Part shown: one piece after another, positions 166-42,321 of the stretch
Layout: each line of letters starts with the position of its first letter
Numbering within the stretch: position 1 is the stretch's first letter
Origin: a virus
Strand: one strand, 5' to 3'
DNA: 43,520 bases
Virus record (IMG/VR): IMGVR_UViG_3300013307_000026
Location: 1 to 43,520 of that record
Made by a program: the position numbers and the translations under genes
Notes under the pieces: model-generated
What the model was told of the DNA's origin: nothing
Databases searched by the model: none
The model's input: the letters and a program-made list of their open reading frames with translations, nothing else

Positions 166-307
166 CACGTGTGAGGAATGAGACCAGTGAAGCGGCCTCG
201 AGCCGACACGCCGTGGTCTTAATCGTTAAGGCTCGAGGTCTGGTTGAGGGTGTCACGTGTGAGGCGCAACAAGTCTTATCGCATTGCTAGGGCTCACACG
301 TGTGAGG
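166..307. promoter_or_regulatory. Three spaced copies of CACGTGTGAGG
   Basis: CACGTGTGAGG occurs at 166-176, 254-264 and 297-307. The last copy lies in a perfect 14-bp palindrome, CTCACACGTGTGAG (293-306). The spacings are 88 and 43 bp, near multiples of four helical turns. All copies lie upstream of the first gene (400), so they look like operator or iteron sites. The binding protein is unknown. Confidence 0.55.
196..238. promoter_or_regulatory. Nested inverted repeat
   Basis: CCTCGAGCC (196-204) and GGCTCGAGG (230-238) form 9-bp arms. Inside lies a second palindrome, CTTAATCGTTAAG (218-230), one of the few A+T-rich patches in the left end. It could be a cruciform, an operator or a weak terminator. 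Nothing in the sequence decides between these. Confidence 0.5.
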
Positions 308-981: not shown

Positions 982-1053
982 TCAGGCCTGACCGCGAACG
1001 CATCGCCTGACCCGGCCGGATCGCCCGGCCGGACACCCTGAGAGGACACCCTG

Positions 1054-1203
1054 ATGGACACACTGCACCTCATCGCTTGGCTAGTCATCCTGGTCGGCAC
1101 CCTGGCCGCCATCGCTGCCTACGTCTACACCGCCCACAACGGGCCGCGCTGGGCGCACGAGCGCGACGCCCGCCTGGCCGCCACCCACACCCCGATCGCC
1201 TGA
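1054..1203 (+). CDS. Small single-pass membrane protein (49 aa)
   Basis: The ATG at 1054 follows a GAGAGGACACC box at 1040. Residues about 5-25 form one hydrophobic segment (LIAWLVILVGTLAAIAAYVY); the rest is a short polar tail rich in Arg and His. The stop TGA (1201-1203) is part of the box of the next gene. The function is unknown; small membrane peptides in phage early regions sometimes alter host envelope or superinfection, but nothing here shows that. Confidence 0.7.
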   Translation: MDTLHLIAWLVILVGTLAAIAAYVYTAHNGPRWAHERDARLAATHTPIA

Positions 1204-1216
1204 GAGGACACCCACC

Positions 1217-1576
1217 ATGATCGCCACCACCACCCGCGCGGCTGCCATTGCTGCCACCCTGACCGCTTCACCCGACGGGGCCACCGTGCCCGTCGACGCA
1301 TCCGCCACCGTGCCCGCCACGGGCTACGTCGTCGCCGATGCCCGCCACGGTGTCACCCTGGAGCGCCTAGACGCTGACCAGGTAGAGCGCTGGGTGCTCT
1401 CCAACCTGGACGCCACGCCCTACCTGGGTATCTGGGCAGACTCCGCCACGGGCCTCGTCTACCTGGACACGGTCGAGATCCTGCCTGACCGCGCCGACGC
1501 CATGGCCCGGGCCGCCACCCTGGGCGAGATCGCCATCTGGGATCTGGGCGCATCCGCTGAGATCCGTTGTGCCTGA
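1217..1576 (+). CDS. Hypothetical phage protein (119 aa)
   Basis: The start follows the box at 1202 with CACC between box and ATG. The N-terminus (about 35 residues) is Ala/Thr-rich and low in complexity. The rest is a compact acidic region (VTLERLDADQVERWVLSNLD, then YLGIWADSATGLVYLDTVEI) that looks like a small globular domain. No signal peptide is convincing and no family is recognised. Its stop is followed by the first GTATAC palindrome, so it is the last gene of the first unit. Confidence 0.7.
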   Translation: MIATTTRAAAIAATLTASPDGATVPVDASATVPATGYVVADARHGVTLERLDADQVERWVLSNLDATPYLGIWADSATGLVYLDTVEILPDRADAMARAATLGEIAIWDLGASAEIRCA

Positions 1577-1579
1577 CCG

Positions 1580-1589
1580 GTGTATACAC
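1580..1589 (+). promoter_or_regulatory. GTGTATACAC palindrome, promoter/operator P1
   Basis: A perfect 10-bp palindrome holding the -10-like hexamer TATACA (1582-1587), immediately after the stop of the 119-aa gene and about 18 nt before the next start box. It is the most divergent of seven related sites and has no clear -35 element. Confidence 0.5.
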
Positions 1590-1622
1590 GTACACACCCC
1601 GCCACCTGAGAGGACGCCCGCC

Positions 1623-1814
1623 ATGCTCACACCGAACGATGACCACCCGAACGACGTCGACACCGACCCGGCCGACCCGGCCGTGATCGCCTGGGATGCG
1701 GACGCCGCCGCCCGCCAGGCCCGCCACAACGACCGCGTACGGGCCGCCCGTGACGCCGCCACCGATGACCCGTGGGCCTGGTCCGCCACGGTCGCCACCA
1801 CCACCACCCGCTGA
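1623..1814 (+). CDS. Small acidic hypothetical protein (63 aa)
   Basis: The ATG at 1623 follows the variant box GAGAGGACGCC (1608). The frame extends upstream across the P1 palindrome, but the box and the promoter make 1623 the likely start. The product begins with an Asp/Asn/Pro-rich stretch, then a charged helix (AARQARHNDRVRAARDAA), and ends Thr-rich. No family is recognised. Its stop overlaps the next box. Confidence 0.65.
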   Translation: MLTPNDDHPNDVDTDPADPAVIAWDADAAARQARHNDRVRAARDAATDDPWAWSATVATTTTR

Positions 1815-1826
1815 GAGGACACCACC

Positions 1827-2147
1827 ATGAGCACCACCCGCACCGCCCTGGCCGCCCTGGCCGCCACCCTGGCCGCCGCTGCAGCCTCCGCCACCATCGG
1901 CCTGGCCGCCATGCCAGCGCATGCCACGCCCGACGCCTGGCAGCCCGCCACCCGCACCGTGGCACCCGCCACGCCGCCCACCATGACCGCCACCCAGGTT
2001 GAGGGATGGCGCCTGTATCGGAGCGAGATCAGCCCCAACGACGGGTGCTGGCTCGACTTCACGTCGTCGTTCCTGGGCCTCGACTACGCCGACGCCTACG
2101 CCAACACCCCGCTCCGCCTGGCCCCGTACGCCGACGCCTGCAACTGA
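1827..2147 (+). CDS. Predicted secreted protein (106 aa)
   Basis: The start follows the box at 1813. The N-terminus is a classic signal peptide: positively charged start (R5), a long Ala/Leu core (residues about 7-28) and an AHA-T cleavage site near residue 33. The mature part of about 73 residues has two Cys (in NDGCWLDF and at the penultimate position) that could form a disulphide outside the membrane. A secreted or envelope protein made from an early-type phage unit might change the host surface, for instance in superinfection exclusion, but that is inference. No family is recognised. Confidence 0.75.
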   Translation: MSTTRTALAALAATLAAAAASATIGLAAMPAHATPDAWQPATRTVAPATPPTMTATQVEGWRLYRSEISPNDGCWLDFTSSFLGLDYADAYANTPLRLAPYADACN

Positions 2148-2176
2148 CCACCCAACCCACCCGAGGAGACACCGCC

Positions 2177-2491
2177 ATGCTCTACCTGAACACCCACGAG
2201 ATCGCCACCTACGCCGTCAACTCCGACCCCGAGCGCCTGCCCAACCTGCACCGGGCGGCCGACACCCTCGCCAACCTGGCCCAGTGGGCCGACGAGAACA
2301 GCGACGGCTGGGCCTACTGGCCCAAGCCATGCCGGGCGGCTGCCAGCCTGCAGCGCCTGCTCATCCGCCCCGAGCACAACGGGTACGACGCCGTCGACTG
2401 CGACGCTGCCACCCTGGCCGCCGCCCTGCGCCCCGTGAAGGCATTTCTCACCCGCCAGGGCGTCGATCACGACGCCATCATCTCCGCCTGA
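2177..2491 (+). CDS. Hypothetical phage protein (104 aa)
   Basis: The start at 2177 follows the variant box GAGGAGACACC (2163); the upstream in-frame extension overlaps the previous gene and is rejected. The product is a mainly helical small domain with regular Leu/Ala spacing (LHRAADTLANLAQWADEN) and a central YWPKPCRAAASLQ segment. No transmembrane segment or metal site is seen and no family is recognised. Confidence 0.7.
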   Translation: MLYLNTHEIATYAVNSDPERLPNLHRAADTLANLAQWADENSDGWAYWPKPCRAAASLQRLLIRPEHNGYDAVDCDAATLAAALRPVKAFLTRQGVDHDAIISA

Positions 2492-2530
2492 CCACCCACC
2501 CACCCAGCACCACGAGAGGACACCACCACC

Positions 2531-2962
2531 ATGAACGTCAGCGCCTACGTCCAGCACCGCCGCCAGTGGGACCAGGTCTGGAGCCTGGCCGCCGACCCGG
2601 TCGCCGCCATCCACCAGGCCGCCACCTTCGCCAGCCCGGAAGACCTGGCCCGCCTCGAGCAGGCCCTGGCCAACCTGAACCGTCGGCCCGTCGTCGGCGA
2701 GCCCGCCACCTACCACATCGGCTCCGACCGCTACGCCGCCCGCGTCGTCTGGGTCAGCCCGTCCGGCCACCAGTGCCGCGTCGCCATCGGTGGCGGTGAG
2801 CCTGGTGACGGCACCCTGTTCACCCGTCGCCAGTGCCGGGTCCAGATGCCCGTCTGGGCCGCCAGCACCAGCGCCCCCGGCATCCGCTACGTGATGGCGG
2901 GCGGCAACTACGGCACCGTCACCTTCGGCCACGCCGAGGACTACCGCGACCCGTCGTTCTGA
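2531..2962 (+). CDS. Conserved phage protein ending YRDPSF (143 aa)
   Basis: The start follows the box at 2514. After a helical N-terminus (about 60 residues) comes a beta-rich domain, TYHIGSDRYAARVVWVSPSG, then FTRRQCRV and a C-terminal YRDPSF. The SDRYA, FTRR and Y.DPSF signature resembles a small, widespread phage family of unknown function. No catalytic residues are evident. A strong hairpin (2970-2995) follows the stop and probably ends this unit. Confidence 0.75.
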   Translation: MNVSAYVQHRRQWDQVWSLAADPVAAIHQAATFASPEDLARLEQALANLNRRPVVGEPATYHIGSDRYAARVVWVSPSGHQCRVAIGGGEPGDGTLFTRRQCRVQMPVWAASTSAPGIRYVMAGGNYGTVTFGHAEDYRDPSF

Positions 2963-2969
2963 CCACCCC

Positions 2970-2995
2970 GGCCCGGGGCGCCATCGCCCCGGGCC
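2970..2995 (+). terminator. Hairpin, 11-bp perfect stem
   Basis: GGCCCGGGGCG (2970-2980) and CGCCCCGGGCC (2985-2995) flank a CCAT loop just after a stop codon. There is no U-tract, as is common for actinobacterial terminators. It may attenuate rather than stop transcription, because the next gene has no visible promoter of its own. Confidence 0.65.
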
Positions 2996-3042
2996 ACCAC
3001 CCACCACCCACCAGCACCACCCACGAGAGGACACCACCCGAC

Positions 3043-3549
3043 ATGACTCACTCCACCATCACCCAGACCCCGGCCGAGCACGCCGCCATCGCCGCCACCC
3101 ACGCCGCACTGATGACCGTCAACAGCGTCGAAGCATGGGCGCCCAGCACCCACCTGTTCGGCGACCTCGAGCACGTCCTGATCGCCATGTTCCGCGACAC
3201 CTACCCCGACCGTGACATCGACGCTCACGCCTGGCTCACCGACCTGCATGACGGCGTCACCCCGGCCGACGCTGAGCAGCGCATGCTGGTCCGCCACGGC
3301 ATCGGCACCGTGATGTCGGGCGACCGCCAGCACTGGATCGAGACCGGCGAGCACGTCACCCACGCGTTCGAAGTCGACAGCCAGGACGAGGGCGGCCCCG
3401 ACGAGGCGCACGCCGCGTTCTGCTCCTGCGGCTGGCGCTGTGAGTGGCAGCACGCCGACACCACCGGCCCGAACTACACCGGCAGCGACGCCTACGACGC
3501 AGCCCGCAGCGAGGGCGACCTGCACCTGGAGCAGGTGCTCGAAGCCTGA
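3043..3549 (+). CDS. Cys-rich hypothetical phage protein (168 aa)
   Basis: The start at 3043 follows the box at 3025; the longer upstream frame runs through the hairpin and is rejected. The C-terminal third holds a C-x-C-x3-C cluster (FCSCGWRCEW) followed by A..A...GD.H, resembling small metal-binding modules seen in many actinophage proteins. The N-terminal part is helical and acidic. The function is unknown. It is the only gene between two strong hairpins. Confidence 0.7.
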   Translation: MTHSTITQTPAEHAAIAATHAALMTVNSVEAWAPSTHLFGDLEHVLIAMFRDTYPDRDIDAHAWLTDLHDGVTPADAEQRMLVRHGIGTVMSGDRQHWIETGEHVTHAFEVDSQDEGGPDEAHAAFCSCGWRCEWQHADTTGPNYTGSDAYDAARSEGDLHLEQVLEA

Positions 3550-3555
3550 TCCCAC

Positions 3556-3584
3556 GGTTGGGCCCGGACCGACCGGGCCCAACC
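3556..3584 (+). terminator. Hairpin, 12-bp perfect stem
   Basis: GGTTGGGCCCGG (3556-3567) and CCGGGCCCAACC (3573-3584) with a 5-nt loop, a few bases after a stop codon and 34 nt before promoter P2. This is the clearest terminator in the window. Confidence 0.8.
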
Positions 3585-3617
3585 CTCAACCCGAGGTCCA
3601 GGGTATTTGGACCGCGT

Positions 3618-3627
3618 GAGTATACTC
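3618..3627 (+). promoter_or_regulatory. GAGTATACTC palindrome, promoter/operator P2
   Basis: A perfect 10-bp palindrome containing TATACT (3621-3626), directly downstream of a strong terminator and 22 nt before the next start box. This placement makes a promoter very likely. No good -35 hexamer lies 16-18 nt upstream, so either an activator or an unusual promoter class is implied. Confidence 0.7.
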
Positions 3628-3661
3628 GTCTCAGTACCACCCACCGCCGAGAGGACACCCC

Positions 3662-4171
3662 ATGCACACCACCACCCACCCCGCCAGCCCGAAGGCCATC
3701 GGCTACGCCCGCGCCCTGCTGGAGACCCGCCAGGTACCCGAGGCCTGGCTGCCCGCCGCCGAGGACGCCCTCACCCAGGGCGACGCCCGTCGGGTGTCCA
3801 CCCTGATCGACGCCCTCAAGCCCCTGCCCTGGAAGGCCCTGCCCGACGTCATCGGTAAGGCGCTTGACGTCCCGGCCGGGCGCTACGCCGTCGCCACCGA
3901 GGCAGGCCCGCTCGGGTTCTACCGGGTCAGCCGCCCCACCGAGGGGCGCTGGGCAGGGCGCACGTTCGTCACCGTCCAGGCCTCCGACGACGAGCACCCG
4001 GTGCGGGGCCTGGCTGCCACCGCCGTGCTCGGCAAGATCGCCGCCGACCCCGAGGGTGCGAGCACCACCTACGGCCGCGAGTTGGGCGTCTGCGGAGTCT
4101 GCGGCCGCACCCTCACCGACGAGGCAAGCAGGGCCGCCGGCATCGGCCCCGTCTGCGCCGCCAAGTTCTGA
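3662..4171 (+). CDS. Phage protein with C-terminal zinc-ribbon (DUF6011-like, 169 aa)
   Basis: First gene after promoter P2, with the box at 3649. The N-terminal third (KAIGYARALLETRQVPEAW) is a helical domain and the middle is beta-rich (GRYAVATEAGPLGFYRV). The last 30 residues carry C-x2-C-GRTLTD, then a Ser and GIGPVCAAKF, the pattern of the DUF6011 zinc-binding family common in actinophages and actinobacteria. The four metal ligands are probably the two Cys of CGVC and the C-terminal Cys plus one other residue. The role is not known; nucleic-acid binding is plausible. A strong hairpin follows. Confidence 0.8.
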   Translation: MHTTTHPASPKAIGYARALLETRQVPEAWLPAAEDALTQGDARRVSTLIDALKPLPWKALPDVIGKALDVPAGRYAVATEAGPLGFYRVSRPTEGRWAGRTFVTVQASDDEHPVRGLAATAVLGKIAADPEGASTTYGRELGVCGVCGRTLTDEASRAAGIGPVCAAKF

Positions 4172-4178
4172 CCACCCC

Positions 4179-4203
4179 GGCCGGGGGCGCCCAGCCCCCG
4201 GCC
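4179..4203 (+). terminator. Hairpin, 10-bp perfect stem
   Basis: GGCCGGGGGC (4179-4188) and GCCCCCGGCC (4194-4203) with a 5-nt loop, 8 nt after the zinc-ribbon gene. There is no U-tract. The next gene starts 27 nt later with only a start box, so this may be a partial terminator or an mRNA-stabilising stem. Confidence 0.6.
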
Positions 4204-4230
4204 ACCCACCCGCACGAGAGGACACCCACC

Positions 4231-4533
4231 ATGACCATCGCCGAAGCCGTCACCGAGCACGAGGCCTGGGCCGCCGACCGCGCGTCCATCCTCGAGGAGG
4301 AGTCCGAGACCGGCTACCTGGACGTCAACGGCATCCAGGCCAGCGACGACGCCGCCGTCGAGGGGTACATCGCCCTCGCTGGCCTGCTCGCCGCCCCCCT
4401 CGCCGCCATCGACTCCGAACTGGACCGCTGGCAGGCGATCGCCGACCACCCCGGCAGCAGCGGCGCGGCCAAGACCGTGGCCCACGCCTCCGTCGTCGCC
4501 ATCAAGCGGCTGCGCTCCAGGATCGAGGCCTGA
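4231..4533 (+). CDS. Hypothetical helical protein (100 aa)
   Basis: The start follows the box at 4216. The product is acidic and alpha-helical throughout (DRASILEEESETGYLDVNG, then IALAGLLAAPLAAIDSELDRW), ending in a basic helix. The central Leu/Ala run is too interrupted for a sure membrane segment. No family is recognised. The next gene starts 1 nt after its stop (TGACATG), so the two are translationally coupled. Confidence 0.7.
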   Translation: MTIAEAVTEHEAWAADRASILEEESETGYLDVNGIQASDDAAVEGYIALAGLLAAPLAAIDSELDRWQAIADHPGSSGAAKTVAHASVVAIKRLRSRIEA

Positions 4534-4534
4534 C

Positions 4535-4765
4535 ATGCCGCTCGCCCGCACCCAGCGCGTCGCCCACATCATCGACAACGACGACGTCGCCCTCACCTAC
4601 TGCGGCCTGATGCTCGCCGTCCCGGCCGACCCGACCGACACCGCCGCCATCCGGGTGCTGACCAGCGCCGGACCCGCCGAGAGCGACTACGCCATCTTCG
4701 ACGACGTCGAGATCCCGCACAACGACTGGCCCTGCATCGCCTGCCACGACCGCTACAACCGCTGA
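4535..4765 (+). CDS. Hypothetical protein with C-terminal CxxC (76 aa)
   Basis: The ATG sits 1 nt after the preceding TGA and has no box of its own, so translation is probably by re-initiation. The product looks beta-rich (VALTYCGLMLAVPADPTD) and ends with PCIACHDRYNR, half of a zinc ribbon; with C23 and the nearby His it could bind one metal. No family is recognised. Its stop lies in the next start box. Confidence 0.65.
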   Translation: MPLARTQRVAHIIDNDDVALTYCGLMLAVPADPTDTAAIRVLTSAGPAESDYAIFDDVEIPHNDWPCIACHDRYNR

Positions 4766-4776
4766 GAGGACCCGCC

Positions 4777-5241
4777 ATGCAGACCATCACCACCCACCAC
4801 GGCCACGGCGTCGACCGCGCCACCCTCACCGTCGACGCCCACCCCGACCCGACCACGGGCCGCACCTACTGGGCCTGGCAGACCCACTTCACCCGGACCG
4901 CCGGCCTCGCCTGGCGCGGCACGGCCGACTACTCCGAGGAGGCCCTCGCCGCCGCCTTCGCTGTCGCCACCGACGAGGTCGACTGCGAGCGCTGCTTCGC
5001 CCCGCTCGAGGACGTCACCCGCTCCGCCGACATCGACGGGCTCCAGCCCAAGTACACCGTCGACGACCAGCCCTACCTGTCCGGCCTGCGGCTCGCCACC
5101 CGGGCCGAGATCCAGGACTACTACGAGACCTACGGCCTGGCCAGCGAGGGCACCATCAACGACTGGCTGCGTCAGATCGACGCGTCGACCGCCATCCTGG
5201 CCCGCCACCTGCGGGACACCGACCCGCAGCGCCAGCCGTGA
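4777..5241 (+). CDS. Hypothetical phage protein (154 aa)
   Basis: The start follows a variant box (GAGAGGACCCG, 4764). The N-terminal half looks like a beta-rich domain (HGVDRATLTVDAHPDPTTG...YWAWQTHFTRT). A C-x2-C (DCERCFAP) lies near residue 70, and the C-terminal half is helical with LRLATRAEIQDYYETYG. No family or enzyme motif is recognised. Its stop overlaps the start of a 25-residue membrane peptide (GTGA). Confidence 0.7.
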   Translation: MQTITTHHGHGVDRATLTVDAHPDPTTGRTYWAWQTHFTRTAGLAWRGTADYSEEALAAAFAVATDEVDCERCFAPLEDVTRSADIDGLQPKYTVDDQPYLSGLRLATRAEIQDYYETYGLASEGTINDWLRQIDASTAILARHLRDTDPQRQP

Positions 5242-5315
5242 GGGCGCGCGACTGGCTGGCCGCCATCGCCCTGGTCGTCACCGCCTGGCTGGCCTGCACC
5301 CTGTTCCTAGCCTGA
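5238..5315 (+). CDS. 25-residue membrane peptide
   Basis: A GTG start overlaps the preceding stop (GTGA, 5238-5241), the same coupling used many times in this window. The product is a short basic N-terminus (RARDW) followed by about 18 hydrophobic residues (LAAIALVVTAWLACTLFLA). It ends 4 nt before promoter P3. The tight overlap and the pure transmembrane composition support translation, but so short a frame may be chance. No function can be assigned. Confidence 0.5.
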   Translation: MRARDWLAAIALVVTAWLACTLFLA

Positions 5316-5319
5316 ACCT

Positions 5320-5329
5320 GTGTATACTC
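5320..5329 (+). promoter_or_regulatory. GTGTATACTC element, promoter/operator P3
   Basis: TATACT at 5323-5328, 14 nt before the start box of the next gene. Identical to P4 and to the - strand site P7. A -35 is only weakly suggested (CTGTTC at 5301-5306, 16-nt spacer). Confidence 0.7.
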
Positions 5330-5358
5330 ATCCCACACCCACCGAGAGGACACCCACC

Positions 5359-5772
5359 ATGTACCCACCCGAGCCCCGCGCCCACGGCGTCGTCACCCTG
5401 ACCCTGCTCGACCTCGACGCGCTCAGCACCCAGGCCCTGGAGGCCTGGCGCCGCGAGCGTCCCGACACCAACTACATCCGGATGGAGCCGGGCTTCGCCC
5501 CGTACGCCGCCACCGAGCACGACGGCACGCTGTACGTCATCTGCAACGAGGGCGTGGGCTGGGAGGTCACCGACACCAACCCCCTGCCGCTCGACCTGTA
5601 CGGCCGCGCCGAGCACTCGTTCAGCATGGCGCCCAACATGCGCGCCACCCTGTCCCCCGACGAGGTGCGGTCCCTGATGACCGGCGACACCGTCGACCTG
5701 GCCGACCACGTCCGCCGGTTCGGCGACCGGCTCGAGGTCAACTTCGAGACCTGGCTGGGACGGCTGTCATGA
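5359..5772 (+). CDS. Hypothetical phage protein (137 aa)
   Basis: First gene after P3, with the box at 5344. The frame is open upstream to 5320, but that part would overlap the promoter. The product is a mixed alpha/beta protein with a YAATEHDGTLYVICNEG strand pair and a helical acidic C-terminus (LSPDEVRSLMTGDTVDLADH). No motif is recognised. The next gene overlaps by 4 nt (ATGA). Confidence 0.7.
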   Translation: MYPPEPRAHGVVTLTLLDLDALSTQALEAWRRERPDTNYIRMEPGFAPYAATEHDGTLYVICNEGVGWEVTDTNPLPLDLYGRAEHSFSMAPNMRATLSPDEVRSLMTGDTVDLADHVRRFGDRLEVNFETWLGRLS

Positions 5773-5975
5773 CCCCGGCCGAGCACCGCCAGATCTCCCT
5801 GGACGCGGGCCACGACGGCTCGTTCTACACCGTCGCCGACCTGCACCGGGTCGAAGGCGCCCGGCTCGCCAGGCTCCGAGGCTCCGGGGCCAGCGGCACC
5901 CACGGCGACCGCCGCACCAAGCGACTCCGCGATCGGGGCTCGCGCAAGCGGGCCGCCATCCGCGACCAGCACTGA
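5769..5975 (+). CDS. Small basic protein (68 aa)
   Basis: The ATGA overlap with the preceding gene gives the start. The first 30 residues are acidic and polar; the last 30 are strongly basic (GDRRTKRLRDRGSRKRAAI), as expected for a protein that binds nucleic acid. No fold or family is recognised. Confidence 0.6.
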   Translation: MTPAEHRQISLDAGHDGSFYTVADLHRVEGARLARLRGSGASGTHGDRRTKRLRDRGSRKRAAIRDQH

Positions 5976-6005
5976 CCACCCCGCACCATCGAGAGGACAC
6001 CCACC

Positions 6006-6302
6006 ATGAGCACCACCAACAACGACGTCCGCTGGATCGTCATCAACGCTGGCACCCGCCAGCGCAGCGAGATCCAGGCCTACCTGTACGACCGGACCAC
6101 CATCGTCCAGTCCTACAACGACGGCCACGGGGACGTGCACATCGCCGTCACGCTCGACCCCACCTCGAGCCCCGACGCCACGTTCCTGGCCAGGTACCAG
6201 GCCGAGCGGCTCATGTCCGGCTGGATCGGCGCCACCGTGTGCGAGACGTTCACCGAGGCTGTCGCCGAGGCGTTCCGCGTGCTGGAGAGGGCGCGTGCGT
6301 GA
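6006..6302 (+). CDS. Hypothetical phage protein (98 aa)
   Basis: The start follows the box at 5991. A small alpha/beta protein beginning with a beta strand (VRWIVINAG) and ending in a helix (FTEAVAEAFRVLERARA). No signal peptide or metal site. The stop and the next start share a base (TGATG at 6300-6304), so the two are coupled. No family recognised. Confidence 0.7.
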   Translation: MSTTNNDVRWIVINAGTRQRSEIQAYLYDRTTIVQSYNDGHGDVHIAVTLDPTSSPDATFLARYQAERLMSGWIGATVCETFTEAVAEAFRVLERARA

Positions 6303-6586
6303 TGCCGTTCTCCAAGCGCGTCATCCAGAACCCCGGAGCCCGGGTCGAGATCGAGTACCGGGCCATGCCCACCTACGTCCTCAACGCCGGCGGCTGGGAC
6401 CACCAGCGGGTCGAGGTCACCCGGCACGAGTGCACCTACCCCGTCACCAGCCGGGGCGTGCAGTGGAAGAAGGGCACCGAGGAGGCGGAGACGTTCACCA
6501 TCGCGCGGGCCGACATCCCCGAACTGATCTCCGCCCTCGCCTCCTACCTGGCCGACTTCACCATGACCGAACTGGAGGAAGGATGA
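6302..6586 (+). CDS. Hypothetical phage protein (94 aa)
   Basis: The ATG at 6302 shares a base with the preceding stop. The product is beta-rich (GARVEIEYRAMPTYVLNAG) with a C-terminal helix (DIPELISALASYLADFTMTEL). No catalytic motif is seen. An ATGA overlap links it to the membrane peptide at 6583, forming a four-gene coupled run (6006-6904). Confidence 0.7.
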   Translation: MPFSKRVIQNPGARVEIEYRAMPTYVLNAGGWDHQRVEVTRHECTYPVTSRGVQWKKGTEEAETFTIARADIPELISALASYLADFTMTELEEG

Positions 6587-6678
6587 AGCAGCGCAGCAGC
6601 GACGACATCGCCGTGCTGGTCACCGTCATCGCCATCGTCATCGTTCTCCTGATCCACGGCGCCGGGCTGGCGGGCTGA
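6583..6678 (+). CDS. 31-residue membrane peptide
   Basis: The ATGA overlap and an upstream GGAGGAAGG (6574-6582) decide the start. The peptide has a charged N-terminus (KQRSSDD) and then about 20 hydrophobic residues (AVLVTVIAIVIVLLIHG). With a good ribosome site and coupling on both sides it is more convincing than the 25-residue peptide at 5238. Function unknown. Confidence 0.65.
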   Translation: MKQRSSDDIAVLVTVIAIVIVLLIHGAGLAG

Positions 6679-6679
6679 C

Positions 6680-6904
6680 ATGATCCAGCCACCCGGCAAC
6701 ACGCCCCGGCCACCGGCCCTGTACTGCACCGCCTGCGGGGCCACCGCCACCGCCTGCACGTGCGAACCAGGGCTGCGGCACCTGGCTCCCATCCCGGCCC
6801 AGCCACGCTCGGTCATCGGCACCACCCTGCTGGTCCTGCTGACCGTCCTGGTGATCGCCCCGATCCTGCTGATCGCCGGCTGCCAGGCCCTGTTCGGGTC
6901 CTGA
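6680..6904 (+). CDS. Zinc-ribbon plus transmembrane protein (74 aa)
   Basis: The ATG is 1 nt after the preceding stop (TGACATG). The N-terminal half has C-x2-C and C-x-C (YCTACGATATACTCEPG), a probable zinc ribbon. The C-terminal half is one transmembrane helix (about residues 47-69) ending near a Cys. The ribbon would then lie on one face of the membrane. This layout recurs in phage accessory membrane proteins of unknown role. Confidence 0.7.
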   Translation: MIQPPGNTPRPPALYCTACGATATACTCEPGLRHLAPIPAQPRSVIGTTLLVLLTVLVIAPILLIAGCQALFGS

Positions 6905-6912
6905 CCCGACGC

Positions 6913-6922
6913 GTGTATACTC
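6913..6922 (+). promoter_or_regulatory. GTGTATACTC element, promoter/operator P4
   Basis: TATACT at 6916-6921, 9 nt after a stop codon and 16 nt before a start box. The sequence is identical to P3. The possible -35 (TTCGGG, 6893-6898) is poor. Confidence 0.7.
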
Positions 6923-6951
6923 ATCTCATGACCAACCGAGAGGACACCCCG

Positions 6952-7206
6952 ATGGACCACTACCTGGCCGACGCGGTCAAGTCGCAGATCGACGACCTGC
7001 CCACCGACCTCATCGCCGAGGTCGCCGCCTATGCCATCGCCGTGCTGCGTCACCGGGCCGAGGAGTACAGCGCCGTGGCCGCCAGCCGGGCGCTGGCTGC
7101 CACCATCGACGTGGCCCTGGCCGAGGAGCCCGGCATCCCGGACCCCGACGACGACGGGCGTGGCGAGATCGAGCACGTGATCGACGGCCTGCGGGGGCGT
7201 GACTGA
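6952..7206 (+). CDS. Hypothetical helical protein (84 aa)
   Basis: The start at 6952 follows the box at 6938. An in-frame ATG at 6928 lies before the box and is less likely. The product is helical and acidic (DLPTDLIAEVAAYAIAVLRHRAEEY), with a Pro-Asp loop (GIPDPDDDGRG). No membrane segment. Its stop shares a base with the next start (TGATG). Confidence 0.7.
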   Translation: MDHYLADAVKSQIDDLPTDLIAEVAAYAIAVLRHRAEEYSAVAASRALAATIDVALAEEPGIPDPDDDGRGEIEHVIDGLRGRD

Positions 7207-7367
7207 TGCCTAGCAAGTTCCGCTACTGCCGCCACTGCGGAGCCCTGCTCAAGTGGAACCCAGACATCGGGGGCTGGCAGGCCATGCCAGGCGGGGAGTA
7301 CGGCGCGTTCGAGTGCGTGCAACGCTTCGGCGCCGGGCACGAACCCCGAGAGGAGACACGTTCATGA
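7206..7367 (+). CDS. Zinc-ribbon miniprotein (53 aa)
   Basis: The start shares a base with the preceding stop; the end overlaps the next start by ATGA (7364-7367). The product begins FRYCRHCGALLKW, a C-x2-C knuckle, with a third Cys in FECVQR and His in GAGHEP, so one zinc could be bound. The GAGAGGAGACACG box of the next gene lies inside its 3' end. It probably binds nucleic acid or a protein partner; this is inference from size and the knuckle. Confidence 0.65.
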   Translation: MPSKFRYCRHCGALLKWNPDIGGWQAMPGGEYGAFECVQRFGAGHEPREETRS

Positions 7368-7603
7368 CCGACGACCTGGCCGCAGGGGCCACCCTGTACG
7401 AACTGGTCCAGGACGCCGCCACACCCGAGCCCGCCATCGCGACAGCGATCTCCGGCGCCAGCCTGCCGGTGCTGCGGATCGCGCACTCCCTGCTGTACGA
7501 CGAGATGCTGCGGACCGACGACGTGCTGCCCCGGCCCGGCACCACGATCCGGCGCCAGATGGTGCTCACCGAGATCCGGCGAAGGGAGATCCAGCCCACC
7601 TGA
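7364..7603 (+). CDS. Hypothetical helical protein (79 aa)
   Basis: The start is set by the variant box at 7348 and the ATGA overlap. The product is an all-helical acidic protein (LYELVQDAATPEPAIATAI, then LRIAHSLLYDEML) with a basic C-terminal helix (RRQMVLTEIRRREIQ). No family recognised. It is the last gene before promoter P5. Confidence 0.65.
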   Translation: MTDDLAAGATLYELVQDAATPEPAIATAISGASLPVLRIAHSLLYDEMLRTDDVLPRPGTTIRRQMVLTEIRRREIQPT

Positions 7604-7621
7604 GAAAAGACGGGCCACCCA

Positions 7622-7650
7622 TTGAACAACGGCCCATCCTGCGTATACTC
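7622..7650 (+). promoter_or_regulatory. Promoter P5: TTGAAC-16-TATACT
   Basis: The best sigma-70-type promoter in the window: -35 TTGAAC (7622-7627), a 16-nt spacer and -10 TATACT (7644-7649) within GCGTATACTC (7641-7650). The start box of the DUF932 gene follows at 7680. Of the seven related sites only this one has a clear -35. Confidence 0.8.
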
Positions 7651-7693
7651 GTACTCACACCCATCCAGTAGTACCCACCGAGAGGACACCACA

Positions 7694-8731
7694 ATGCACG
7701 AGATCACCGAGACCGACGGAATGTTCAGCGTTCGCCAGGAGACCTGGCACGGGCTGGGCACGGTGCTCACCGACTACCCCACGGTCGAGGAGGCGAAGCA
7801 GATCGCCCACCCGTGGGAGCCCGTGTCGGAGCCCATCTACCGGGCGGTGCCGACGTTCGTCGAAGAGCAGGTGATGGACGGCAGTGGCAACTGGGTCACA
7901 GAGACCCGGCCGACGGTCCACTACGTCGAGGTCACCGACTCCGTGCTCAACGCCCGGTCCGACAACGGCGCCAGCCTGGGTGTCGTCGGCAAGGGCTTCA
8001 CCCCGGTCAGCAACCAGGAGATGTACGACATCGCCGAGGCCATCGAGGGCGGCGACAAGGGCAGCGTGATGCTCGAGACCGGCGGCTCGCTCGCCGGCGG
8101 CCGCAAGGTGTGGCTGCTGCTCCGGCTGCGTGAGCCGATCGCCATCAAGGGTGACCCGCACGGGGAGTCCATCGCCTACTACGCGCTGCAGAACCAGCAC
8201 GACGGCGGTGGCGCGTTCCGTGGCCAGGGCACCAACGTCCGGATCGTCTGCGCCAACACCAGCCGGGCGGCCGACCTGGATGCGGAGGCGCGGGGCACCG
8301 AGTTCGTGTTCCGCCACACCTCCGGCATCACGCAGCGGATCGAGGAGGCCCGCGACGCCCTCGCCGGGTGGCGCGAGTCGATCCAGCAGTGGCGGCTGGC
8401 GAACGAGTCGCTGATCGCGACCCGGGTGACCACCGCCCAGGCCGAGGTGTTCATCGAGGAGTTCATCCCGATGCCGGCGGCTCGCGCGGTCTCGGACCGG
8501 GTGGTGGAGAACGTGCTCACCGGCCGCGCCGAACTGCGGGCCATCCTGGACGGCCCGACCTGCGAGGGGATCGACCACACCGCCTACGGCCTGGTCCAGG
8601 CGGCGAGTGAGTACCACCAGCATGTGCGTGCGGCCCGCTCGGCGGAGTCCCGGTTCAAGCGGGCCTACCTGGAGCCGCAGCGGATCCTGACCGACGCGGT
8701 CGAGATCGCCCGCCAGGTCGCGCTGGTCTGA
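7694..8731 (+). CDS. DUF932 family protein (345 aa)
   Basis: The start follows the box at 7680, behind the strongest promoter in the left arm, which suggests high or early expression. The N-terminus (MFSVRQETWHGLGTVLTD) and the core (GVVGKGFTPVSNQEMYDIAEAI; VRIVCANTSRAAD) match the DUF932 phage/plasmid-like family, which is widespread on plasmids and phages. The usual length is 300-400 aa, so it appears complete. Its biochemical role is not established. It is the largest gene of the left arm and the last before a 362-nt noncoding gap. Confidence 0.9.
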   Translation: MHEITETDGMFSVRQETWHGLGTVLTDYPTVEEAKQIAHPWEPVSEPIYRAVPTFVEEQVMDGSGNWVTETRPTVHYVEVTDSVLNARSDNGASLGVVGKGFTPVSNQEMYDIAEAIEGGDKGSVMLETGGSLAGGRKVWLLLRLREPIAIKGDPHGESIAYYALQNQHDGGGAFRGQGTNVRIVCANTSRAADLDAEARGTEFVFRHTSGITQRIEEARDALAGWRESIQQWRLANESLIATRVTTAQAEVFIEEFIPMPAARAVSDRVVENVLTGRAELRAILDGPTCEGIDHTAYGLVQAASEYHQHVRAARSAESRFKRAYLEPQRILTDAVEIARQVALV

Positions 8732-40677: not shown

Positions 40678-40718
40678 TGGGTGTCCTCTCGGGTCGCAGT
40701 TCTCGGCGGGTCGTCGCT

Positions 40719-40728
40719 GAGTATACGC
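40719..40728 (-). promoter_or_regulatory. GCGTATACTC element, promoter/operator P6
   Basis: Minus strand GCGTATACTC, identical to P5. TATACT occupies 40725-40720 (reading leftward), 5 nt after the stop of the upstream gene and 30 nt before the start box of the 132-aa gene. No clear -35. Confidence 0.7.
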
Positions 40729-41968: not shown

Positions 41969-41978
41969 GAGTATACAC
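41969..41978 (-). promoter_or_regulatory. GTGTATACTC element, promoter/operator P7
   Basis: Minus strand GTGTATACTC, identical to P3 and P4, at the left part of a 520-nt gene-free region (41814-42332). It would read leftward into the 135-aa gene. Unlike the others no GAGAGGACACC box follows it. Confidence 0.65.
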
Positions 41979-42279: not shown

Positions 42280-42321
42280 CCCCGGGGCGGTCAAGGATGG
42301 GTGTCCTCTCCCGCCCCGGGG
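42280..42321 (-). terminator. Hairpin with a start-box sequence in its loop
   Basis: CCCCGGGGCGG (42280-42290) and CCGCCCCGGGG (42311-42321) form an 11-bp stem. The 20-nt loop on the - strand contains the full GAGAGGACACC box. No start codon follows at the usual distance. It lies 11 nt after the 104-aa gene, so it is placed as a terminator. Confidence 0.65.

What the first reader, a model, noticed from the sequence alone, without database searches (positions are those of the whole stretch)
1040..7690. Near-invariant GAGAGGACACC start box in both arms but not in structural genes
Eleven exact and four variant copies precede + strand starts, and two more exact copies lie on the - strand at 40680 and 42300. 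Only GAGAGGA can pair with 16S rRNA; the fixed ACACC must serve something else, such as an RNA-binding regulator, phage-specific initiation or homologous shuffling of gene cassettes. It resembles the start-associated sequences of cluster K mycobacteriophages but differs in sequence. None of the roughly 28 late genes uses it.
Basis: partly seen in the sequence, partly recalled or inferred. Interest (0 to 1): 0.7.

Follow-up and report, generated by a model that had tools for sequence, protein, structure and literature searches.

The report
Phage-wide repeated ribosome-binding start box
An uncultured actinobacterial phage puts the same 11-letter sequence in front of nearly every non-structural left-arm gene that must start translation on its own; it is a strong, exposed ribosome-binding site of the 'start-associated sequence' type known from a few other actinophages, but with a new sequence.

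Summary
GAGAGGACACC occurs 13 times (chance 0.06): 11 on + before ATG codons, one on - before ATG 40677, and one orphan (42300) inside a hairpin. Four variants precede + starts. None of 26 late ORFs uses it, and actinobacterial chromosomes carry it at background (~0.5 per Mb). It is an SAS-like start box, as in cluster K (GGGATAGGAGCCC) and Microbacterium cluster EF (GGGAAAGGACCCC), with its own sequence.

New here: (i) between 1054 and 7694 all 14 separately starting genes carry it and only 1 of 8 coupled genes does (P=5e-5); Anaya (P=4e-8) and Kozie (P=8e-4) show the same bias. (ii) Box leaders are 81% A/C and far less structured than other starts (P=6e-6). (iii) The CACC tail is really fixed: 12/15, against 0/58 after GAGAGGA elsewhere. 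(iv) DUF932 homologues in three other lineages each carry their own phage's box, so box identity follows the genome, not the gene.

Best reading: a standardised, highly accessible ribosome-binding site for independent initiation. GAGAGGA pairs with 16S rRNA. Why CACC is letter-fixed is unproven; a lineage-specific factor is possible. New member of a known kind.

The parts
1040..1050 (+). box, exact; ATG 1054
1202..1212 (+). box, exact; ATG 1217; stop codon of the upstream gene overlaps its first bases
1582..1589 (+). promoter-like GTATACAC ahead of the 1608 box
1608..1618 (+). box variant GAGAGGACGCC; ATG 1623
1813..1823 (+). box, exact; ATG 1827
2163..2173 (+). box variant GAGGAGACACC; ATG 2177
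2514..2524 (+). box, exact; ATG 2531
3025..3035 (+). box, exact; ATG 3043
3620..3627 (+). promoter-like GTATACTC ahead of the 3649 box
3649..3659 (+). box, exact; ATG 3662 (DUF6011 protein)
4216..4226 (+). box, exact; ATG 4231
4764..4774 (+). box variant GAGAGGACCCG; ATG 4777
5322..5329 (+). promoter-like GTATACTC ahead of the 5344 box
5344..5354 (+). box, exact; ATG 5359
5991..6001 (+). box, exact; ATG 6006
6915..6922 (+). promoter-like GTATACTC ahead of the 6938 box
6938..6948 (+). box, exact; ATG 6952
7348..7358 (+). box variant GAGAGGAGACA; ATG 7364 (the only box at a coupled start)
7643..7650 (+). promoter-like GTATACTC ahead of the 7680 box
7680..7690 (+). box, exact; ATG 7694 (DUF932 gene)
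7694..8731 (+). DUF932 gene; homologues in other phages carry those phages' own boxes
40680..40690 (-). box, exact; ATG 40677 on -
40719..40726 (-). promoter-like GTATACTC ahead of the 40680 box
41969..41976 (-). seventh GTATACTC, leftward, not followed by a box
42280..42321 (-). hairpin CCCCGGGGCGG...CCGCCCCGGGG starting 11 nt after a stop codon (42333), enclosing the orphan box
42300..42310 (-). orphan box, exact, no ATG start; its AGGA is paired in the hairpin

Best explanation
The box is a phage-specific, standardised ribosome-binding site (an SAS-like element) placed in front of non-structural genes that must begin translation on their own. GAGAGGA forms a 7-bp duplex with the 3' end of 16S rRNA. 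It sits 6-11 nt (mostly 7-8) before an ATG in an A/C-rich, nearly structure-free leader, so 30S subunits load easily; genes whose start overlaps or abuts the previous stop use translational coupling and do not need it. Six boxes lie 15-30 nt behind a promoter-like TATACT, which would give short, open leaders. Shown by computation: copy number, position rule, pairing potential, leader openness, fixed tail, absence from late genes and hosts. Inferred: that it drives strong non-structural expression; that GTATACTC is the promoter; and that one motif per genome is kept by selection for a common initiation context, possibly with a lineage-specific factor reading the CACC tail.
For: 13 exact copies against 0.06 expected. 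14/14 separate starts carry box or variant, 1/8 coupled starts do, Fisher 4.7e-5; same bias in Anaya (15/24 vs 0/34, P=4e-8) and Kozie (10/16 vs 4/31, P=8e-4). SD energies: box genes mean -9.8, late genes -7.7. Leader MFE median -8.4 vs -20.3 for late genes (P=6e-6), unpaired fraction 0.59 vs 0.44 (P=7e-5), leader composition 58% C and 23% A. GTATAC occurs seven times in the window, six of them upstream of a box. The same scan finds 12 copies here, 11-17 in Anaya, Pixie and TM4, 9 in AnnaSerena and 7 or fewer in the other phages surveyed except G053 (10) and Megan (8); capsid-based relatives reach at most 4. Published SAS elements have the same placement and gene class (PMC3203893, PMC7302621).
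Against: A plain accessible SD explains the A/C character of the tail but not why 12 of 15 read exactly CACC while neighbouring letters vary. Box use in the right arm is one gene only. Start codons, the promoter and the 16S sequence are inferred, since the host is unknown and there is no expression data. I chose starts myself, which could favour ATGs behind boxes.
Confidence: 0.75

Rival explanations
1. The box is also read by a trans-acting, lineage-specific factor (phage protein, or phage-altered ribosome or initiation factor) that recognises the purine part plus the fixed tail, making the box genes a translational regulon.
For: Tail fixed beyond composition (12/15 CACC, P=4e-16). Box identity follows the genome: DUF932 homologues (49-57% identical) carry GAGAGGACACC here, CCGAAAGGCA in Kozie, CACGAAAGGCAG in Megan and GAGAGGGAGAAACG in L191. 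Cluster K authors also leave open a host- or phage-encoded partner (PMC3203893).
Against: No candidate factor was identified. Every tail letter can be explained as A/C spacer apart from its fixed order. No experiment that I found in any SAS phage shows a partner.
Confidence: 0.25
2. Boxes are boundary sequences at which gene cassettes recombine, and sameness is kept by shuffling among related phages.
For: Boxes mark genes with separate starts. Breakpoints between Kozie and MementoMori lie near boxes somewhat more than chance (4 of 38 edges, P=0.012).
Against: Anaya against Angelica: 2 of 24 edges, P=0.11. 11 bp is short for homologous recombination (general knowledge). DUF932 homologues carry the recipient genome's box, so the box does not travel with the gene.
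Confidence: 0.12
3. Ordinary Shine-Dalgarno sites of this host lineage, similar by common optimum or recent duplication.
For: Strong SD complement with normal spacing.
Against: 0/58 CACC tails after GAGAGGA in other actinophages. Eighteen actinobacterial genomes carry the 11-mer about 0-1 times per Mb, close to its reversed control. 26 late ORFs of the same phage do not use it. Sequence information drops to 1.2 bits or less per position just outside the box, against recent block duplication.
Confidence: 0.1
4. The orphan copy at 42300 in a hairpin acts in trans: as a decoy if read leftward, or as an anti-box RNA if read rightward, tuning all box genes.
For: It is the only exact box not at a start, and it lies in one of about five perfect 11-bp stems; chance for one given site about 0.003. 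Anaya's single opposite-strand SAS copy also sits in a 6-bp GC hairpin loop within a non-coding stretch matched in 177 records.
Against: Post hoc. The hairpin follows a stop codon, where a terminator is expected. In other cluster K phages the loop is not kept complementary to SAS. No transcript known.
Confidence: 0.06

Closest known systems
Start-associated sequence (SAS) of cluster K mycobacteriophages (PMC3203893)
   Same: 11-19 near-identical copies, a few nt before ATG, non-structural genes only, SD core plus conserved C-rich tail without pairing to 16S, about half behind a promoter-containing element, occasional opposite-strand orphan
   Different: sequence GGGATAGGAGCCC against GAGAGGACACC; no 17-bp inverted repeat (ESAS) noticed here; unrelated structural genes; temperate mycobacteriophages
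SAS of Microbacterium cluster EF phages, AnnaSerena (PMC7302621)
   Same: GGGAAAGGACCCC at ribosome-binding positions, about ten copies, same GANAGGA + NNCC layout
   Different: sequence; upstream element centred on GTAGAG rather than GTATACTC
Start boxes of Microbacterium cluster EI and Megan (CCGAAAGGCA; ACGAAAGGCAG), found here
   Same: nearest DUF932 and capsid relatives among named phages; 7-11 copies, mostly at separate starts, DUF932 gene included
   Different: different letters and only 2-3 fixed bases after the purine core; not described as SAS in the passages read
Canonical Shine-Dalgarno site
   Same: pairs with the 16S 3' end at normal spacing
   Different: near-invariant including four letters that cannot pair

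Membership tests
SAS-like start box (kind) | a dozen or so near-identical copies directly upstream of start codons | tested here: met
   12 exact start-associated copies plus 4 variants
SAS-like start box (kind) | restricted to non-structural genes, one orientation within the operon | tested here: met
   none of 26 late ORFs; left arm all +
SAS-like start box (kind) | conservation extends beyond bases able to pair with 16S rRNA | tested here: met
   CACC 12/15, P=4e-16; tail adds only -0.6 kcal/mol
cluster K SAS | consensus GGGATAGGAGCCC | tested here: not met
   GAGAGGACACC
cluster K SAS | about half linked to an ESAS with SigA-like promoter and 17-bp imperfect inverted repeat | tested here: inconclusive
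   6 boxes have promoter-like GTATACTC upstream; no 17-bp inverted repeat noticed there
cluster K SAS | carried by a cluster K phage | tested here: not met
   no long nucleotide match to any phage record for 1-25000; capsid best hits at 37-46% identity, to other phages
cluster EF SAS | consensus GGGAAAGGACCCC | tested here: not met
Shine-Dalgarno site | complementarity to the 16S 3' tail at 5-11 nt from the start | tested here: met
   the host's own 16S is unknown, the general actinobacterial tail was used
Shine-Dalgarno site | needed for translation of the downstream gene | not testable with these tools
   needs reporters or ribosome profiling
recognition site of an RNA-binding regulator | a binding protein | not testable with these tools
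   no candidate identified

The most novel reading that the evidence does not exclude
Actinophage lineages each run a private translational regulon: a genome-wide start box with its own spelling, read by a matching phage-encoded factor, with coupled genes following passively. Incoming genes are re-tagged with the resident box, as the DUF932 homologues suggest, and an orphan hairpin copy may act as a decoy.
Probability: 0.2. Interest if true: 0.75.

Novelty: new member of a known kind. Interest (0 to 1): 0.45.

Why it matters
Start-associated sequences have been known since 2011 without a function. This phage adds another sequence with the same layout. The work also gives two testable regularities: boxes mark independently initiated rather than coupled genes, and box spelling belongs to the genome rather than the gene. 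If a trans-acting partner exists, these would make it searchable by comparing phages with different boxes; if not, they argue that SAS are standardised accessible ribosome-binding sites, which would close a small open question.

Tried and rejected
Host ribosome-binding consensus: rejected, about 0.5 copies per Mb in 18 actinobacterial genomes, close to the reversed control. Inheritance with the capsid lineage: 0 of 30 capsid-relative records carry the box and none of those surveyed has a comparable box. Same box elsewhere in IMG/VR: 50 further high-GC records carry exactly one copy, while G053 and G054 carry six; in G053 the box ends a longer repeated structured leader with a looser tail, so it is not homologous evidence. 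Promoter-plus-box pattern in IMG/VR found no relative. Anti-box RNA in cluster K: loop complementarity kept in Anaya, Angelica, Validus, Niklas and SgtBeansprout but lost in others. Rfam: nothing in the window. The first tail-protein query found nothing. No close relative with the same left arm was found, so conservation of the tail between close relatives could not be measured.
Full report
What is there. The window is a 43.5-kb virus record, 65-72% G+C by 2-kb window, with late genes on the minus strand (portal, MuF-like, major capsid, tail, tape measure, endolysin) between a rightward left arm of small genes and a leftward right arm. GAGAGGACACC is present 13 times against 0.06 expected: eleven before + strand ATGs, one before the minus-strand ATG 40677, and one at 42300 that has no ATG start. 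Four variants also precede + starts. The tiled late ORFs do not use it. I therefore confirm the observation, with the corrections that the 42300 copy is not start-associated, that the right arm has a single start-associated copy, and that the first left-arm gene (DUF7178, ATG at 400) has a plain GGAGGAA site.

Is the tail real? After GAGAGGA the next four letters are CACC in 12 of 15 start-associated copies. With the local composition (53% C, 22% A) the chance is 4e-16. After 58 start-associated GAGAGGA sites in other actinophage sequences there is no CACC, and after 1758 AGGA sites there are 17. Outside the 11 letters information falls to 1.2 bits or less per position, so the copies are not recent block duplications.

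Between 1054 and 7694 every gene with a start separated from the previous stop carries the box or a variant (14/14), while only one of eight genes that overlap or abut the previous gene does (Fisher 4.7e-5). Using published annotation, Anaya shows 15/24 against 0/34 (P=4e-8) and Kozie 10/16 against 4/31 (P=8e-4). Start boxes mark independent initiation; coupled genes are served by their neighbours.

Leaders. The 35 nt before box starts, without the core, are 81% A or C, against 48% for unboxed left-arm starts and 47% for late starts. Folding of -35 to +35 gives a median of -8.4 kcal/mol against -20.3 for late genes (P=6e-6), and the region around the start is more often unpaired (0.59 against 0.44, P=7e-5). 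The box is thus a strong SD in an open leader. GTATAC occurs seven times, always intergenic, and six lie with their TATACT 15-30 nt before a box, which suggests short transcripts starting just upstream. These promoters are inferred.

Relatives. Among 30 IMG/VR records with related capsids none has the box, and de novo scans of those surveyed find no comparable box (at most 4 copies of any SD-like 10-mer). The same scan recovers the known SAS of Anaya, Pixie, TM4 (11-17 copies) and AnnaSerena (9), so it works. Among named phages the nearest by DUF932 (54%), and related by capsid (about 37%), are Microbacterium cluster EI phages. Kozie of that group and Megan turn out to have their own boxes, CCGAAAGGCA and ACGAAAGGCAG, at 7-11 starts, the DUF932 gene included; L191, with a 57% identical DUF932 protein, has GAGAGGGAGAAACG at three starts including that gene. 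So the same gene carries a different box in each lineage, spelled like the other boxes of that genome. The paper on Microbacterium phages reports a different 30-bp intergenic repeat for cluster EI and, in the passages I read, no SAS there. Gordonia phage Ligma shows GAGAGGAACCCC at several starts, some behind a repeated TGAGCGGGACAGACCCGCC. Aligned, the three well-defined families read GATAGGAGCCC, GAAAGGACCCC and GAGAGGACACC: GANAGGA followed by two letters and CC.

How it most likely works. GAGAGGA recruits the 30S subunit, the A/C-rich leader keeps it exposed, and the spacing to ATG is normal. This explains position, gene class and most of the tail's character. What it leaves open is the exact spelling of the tail and its genome-wide uniformity. 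Either selection favours one proven context that is copied when genes are acquired, or a lineage-specific factor reads it. I give the ribosome-binding-site reading 0.75 and an additional factor 0.25 (the two overlap). Cassette recombination has weak support in analogous phages (P=0.012 and 0.11) and is contradicted by the DUF932 comparison.

The orphan copy. At 42280-42321 a perfect 11-bp stem starts 11 nt after a stop codon and encloses the box, whose AGGA is itself paired. It could be a terminator. Anaya's single opposite-strand SAS, noted by its authors as not obviously at a gene start, also lies in a small GC hairpin, inside a non-coding stretch matched in 177 mycobacteriophage records. 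But in several of those the loop no longer matches SAS, so I treat a trans-acting RNA as a low-probability idea.

Verdict. Real, non-random, functional-looking, and a new member of the SAS kind with a new spelling; not a member of the cluster K or EF families by sequence. The general rules (independent starts, genome-specific spelling) are the part of most interest.

Noticed in passing
G053 = IMGVR_UViG_3300025875_000028 (L244-L246), minus strand, e.g. 55553, 54641, 53682, 823, 390: Ten starts in an unrelated phage contig are preceded by a tRNA-like mini-element: a T-arm (GGTTCGAGYCC) on a short acceptor-like stem, then a second hairpin, then GACAGAGAGGA and ATG. Stem letters change on both sides between copies (GGGTG/CACCC, GCCGG/CCGGC, GCCCG/CGGGC). 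ARAGORN calls no tRNA and Rfam no match above threshold.
   Followed up: partly
L425:383-767 (Anaya 59682-60066) and homologues L426-L437: Mostly unannotated stretch near the right end, matched in 177 mycobacteriophage records, with a conserved TTGAC...CTTTTAGACT block and several hairpins, one loop being complementary to SAS in some members; looks like an undescribed structured RNA.
   Followed up: partly
L423 (Gordonia phage Ligma), minus strand 41606, 37013, 36465, 20723, 14050: Repeated GAGAGGAACCCC/AACACC before starts, several behind TGAGCGGGACAGACCCGCC: apparently another SAS/ESAS-like pair.
   Followed up: partly
L419 (Kozie) 29382, 29813, 31332: A second start-box family, GAGATAGGA, in the rightmost gene group, beside the main CGAAAGGCA family.
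   Followed up: no
window 166-303: Three copies of CACGTGTGAG, partly as palindromes, upstream of the DUF7178 gene: possible operators.
   Followed up: no
window 2001-6000: Strong strand bias, G-C skew about -0.19 and A-T skew about +0.19, not seen in late genes.
   Followed up: no
window 2970-2995, 3556-3584, 4175-4203: GC-rich hairpins just after stop codons in the left arm, terminator-like without a U run (the third by eye only).
   Followed up: no
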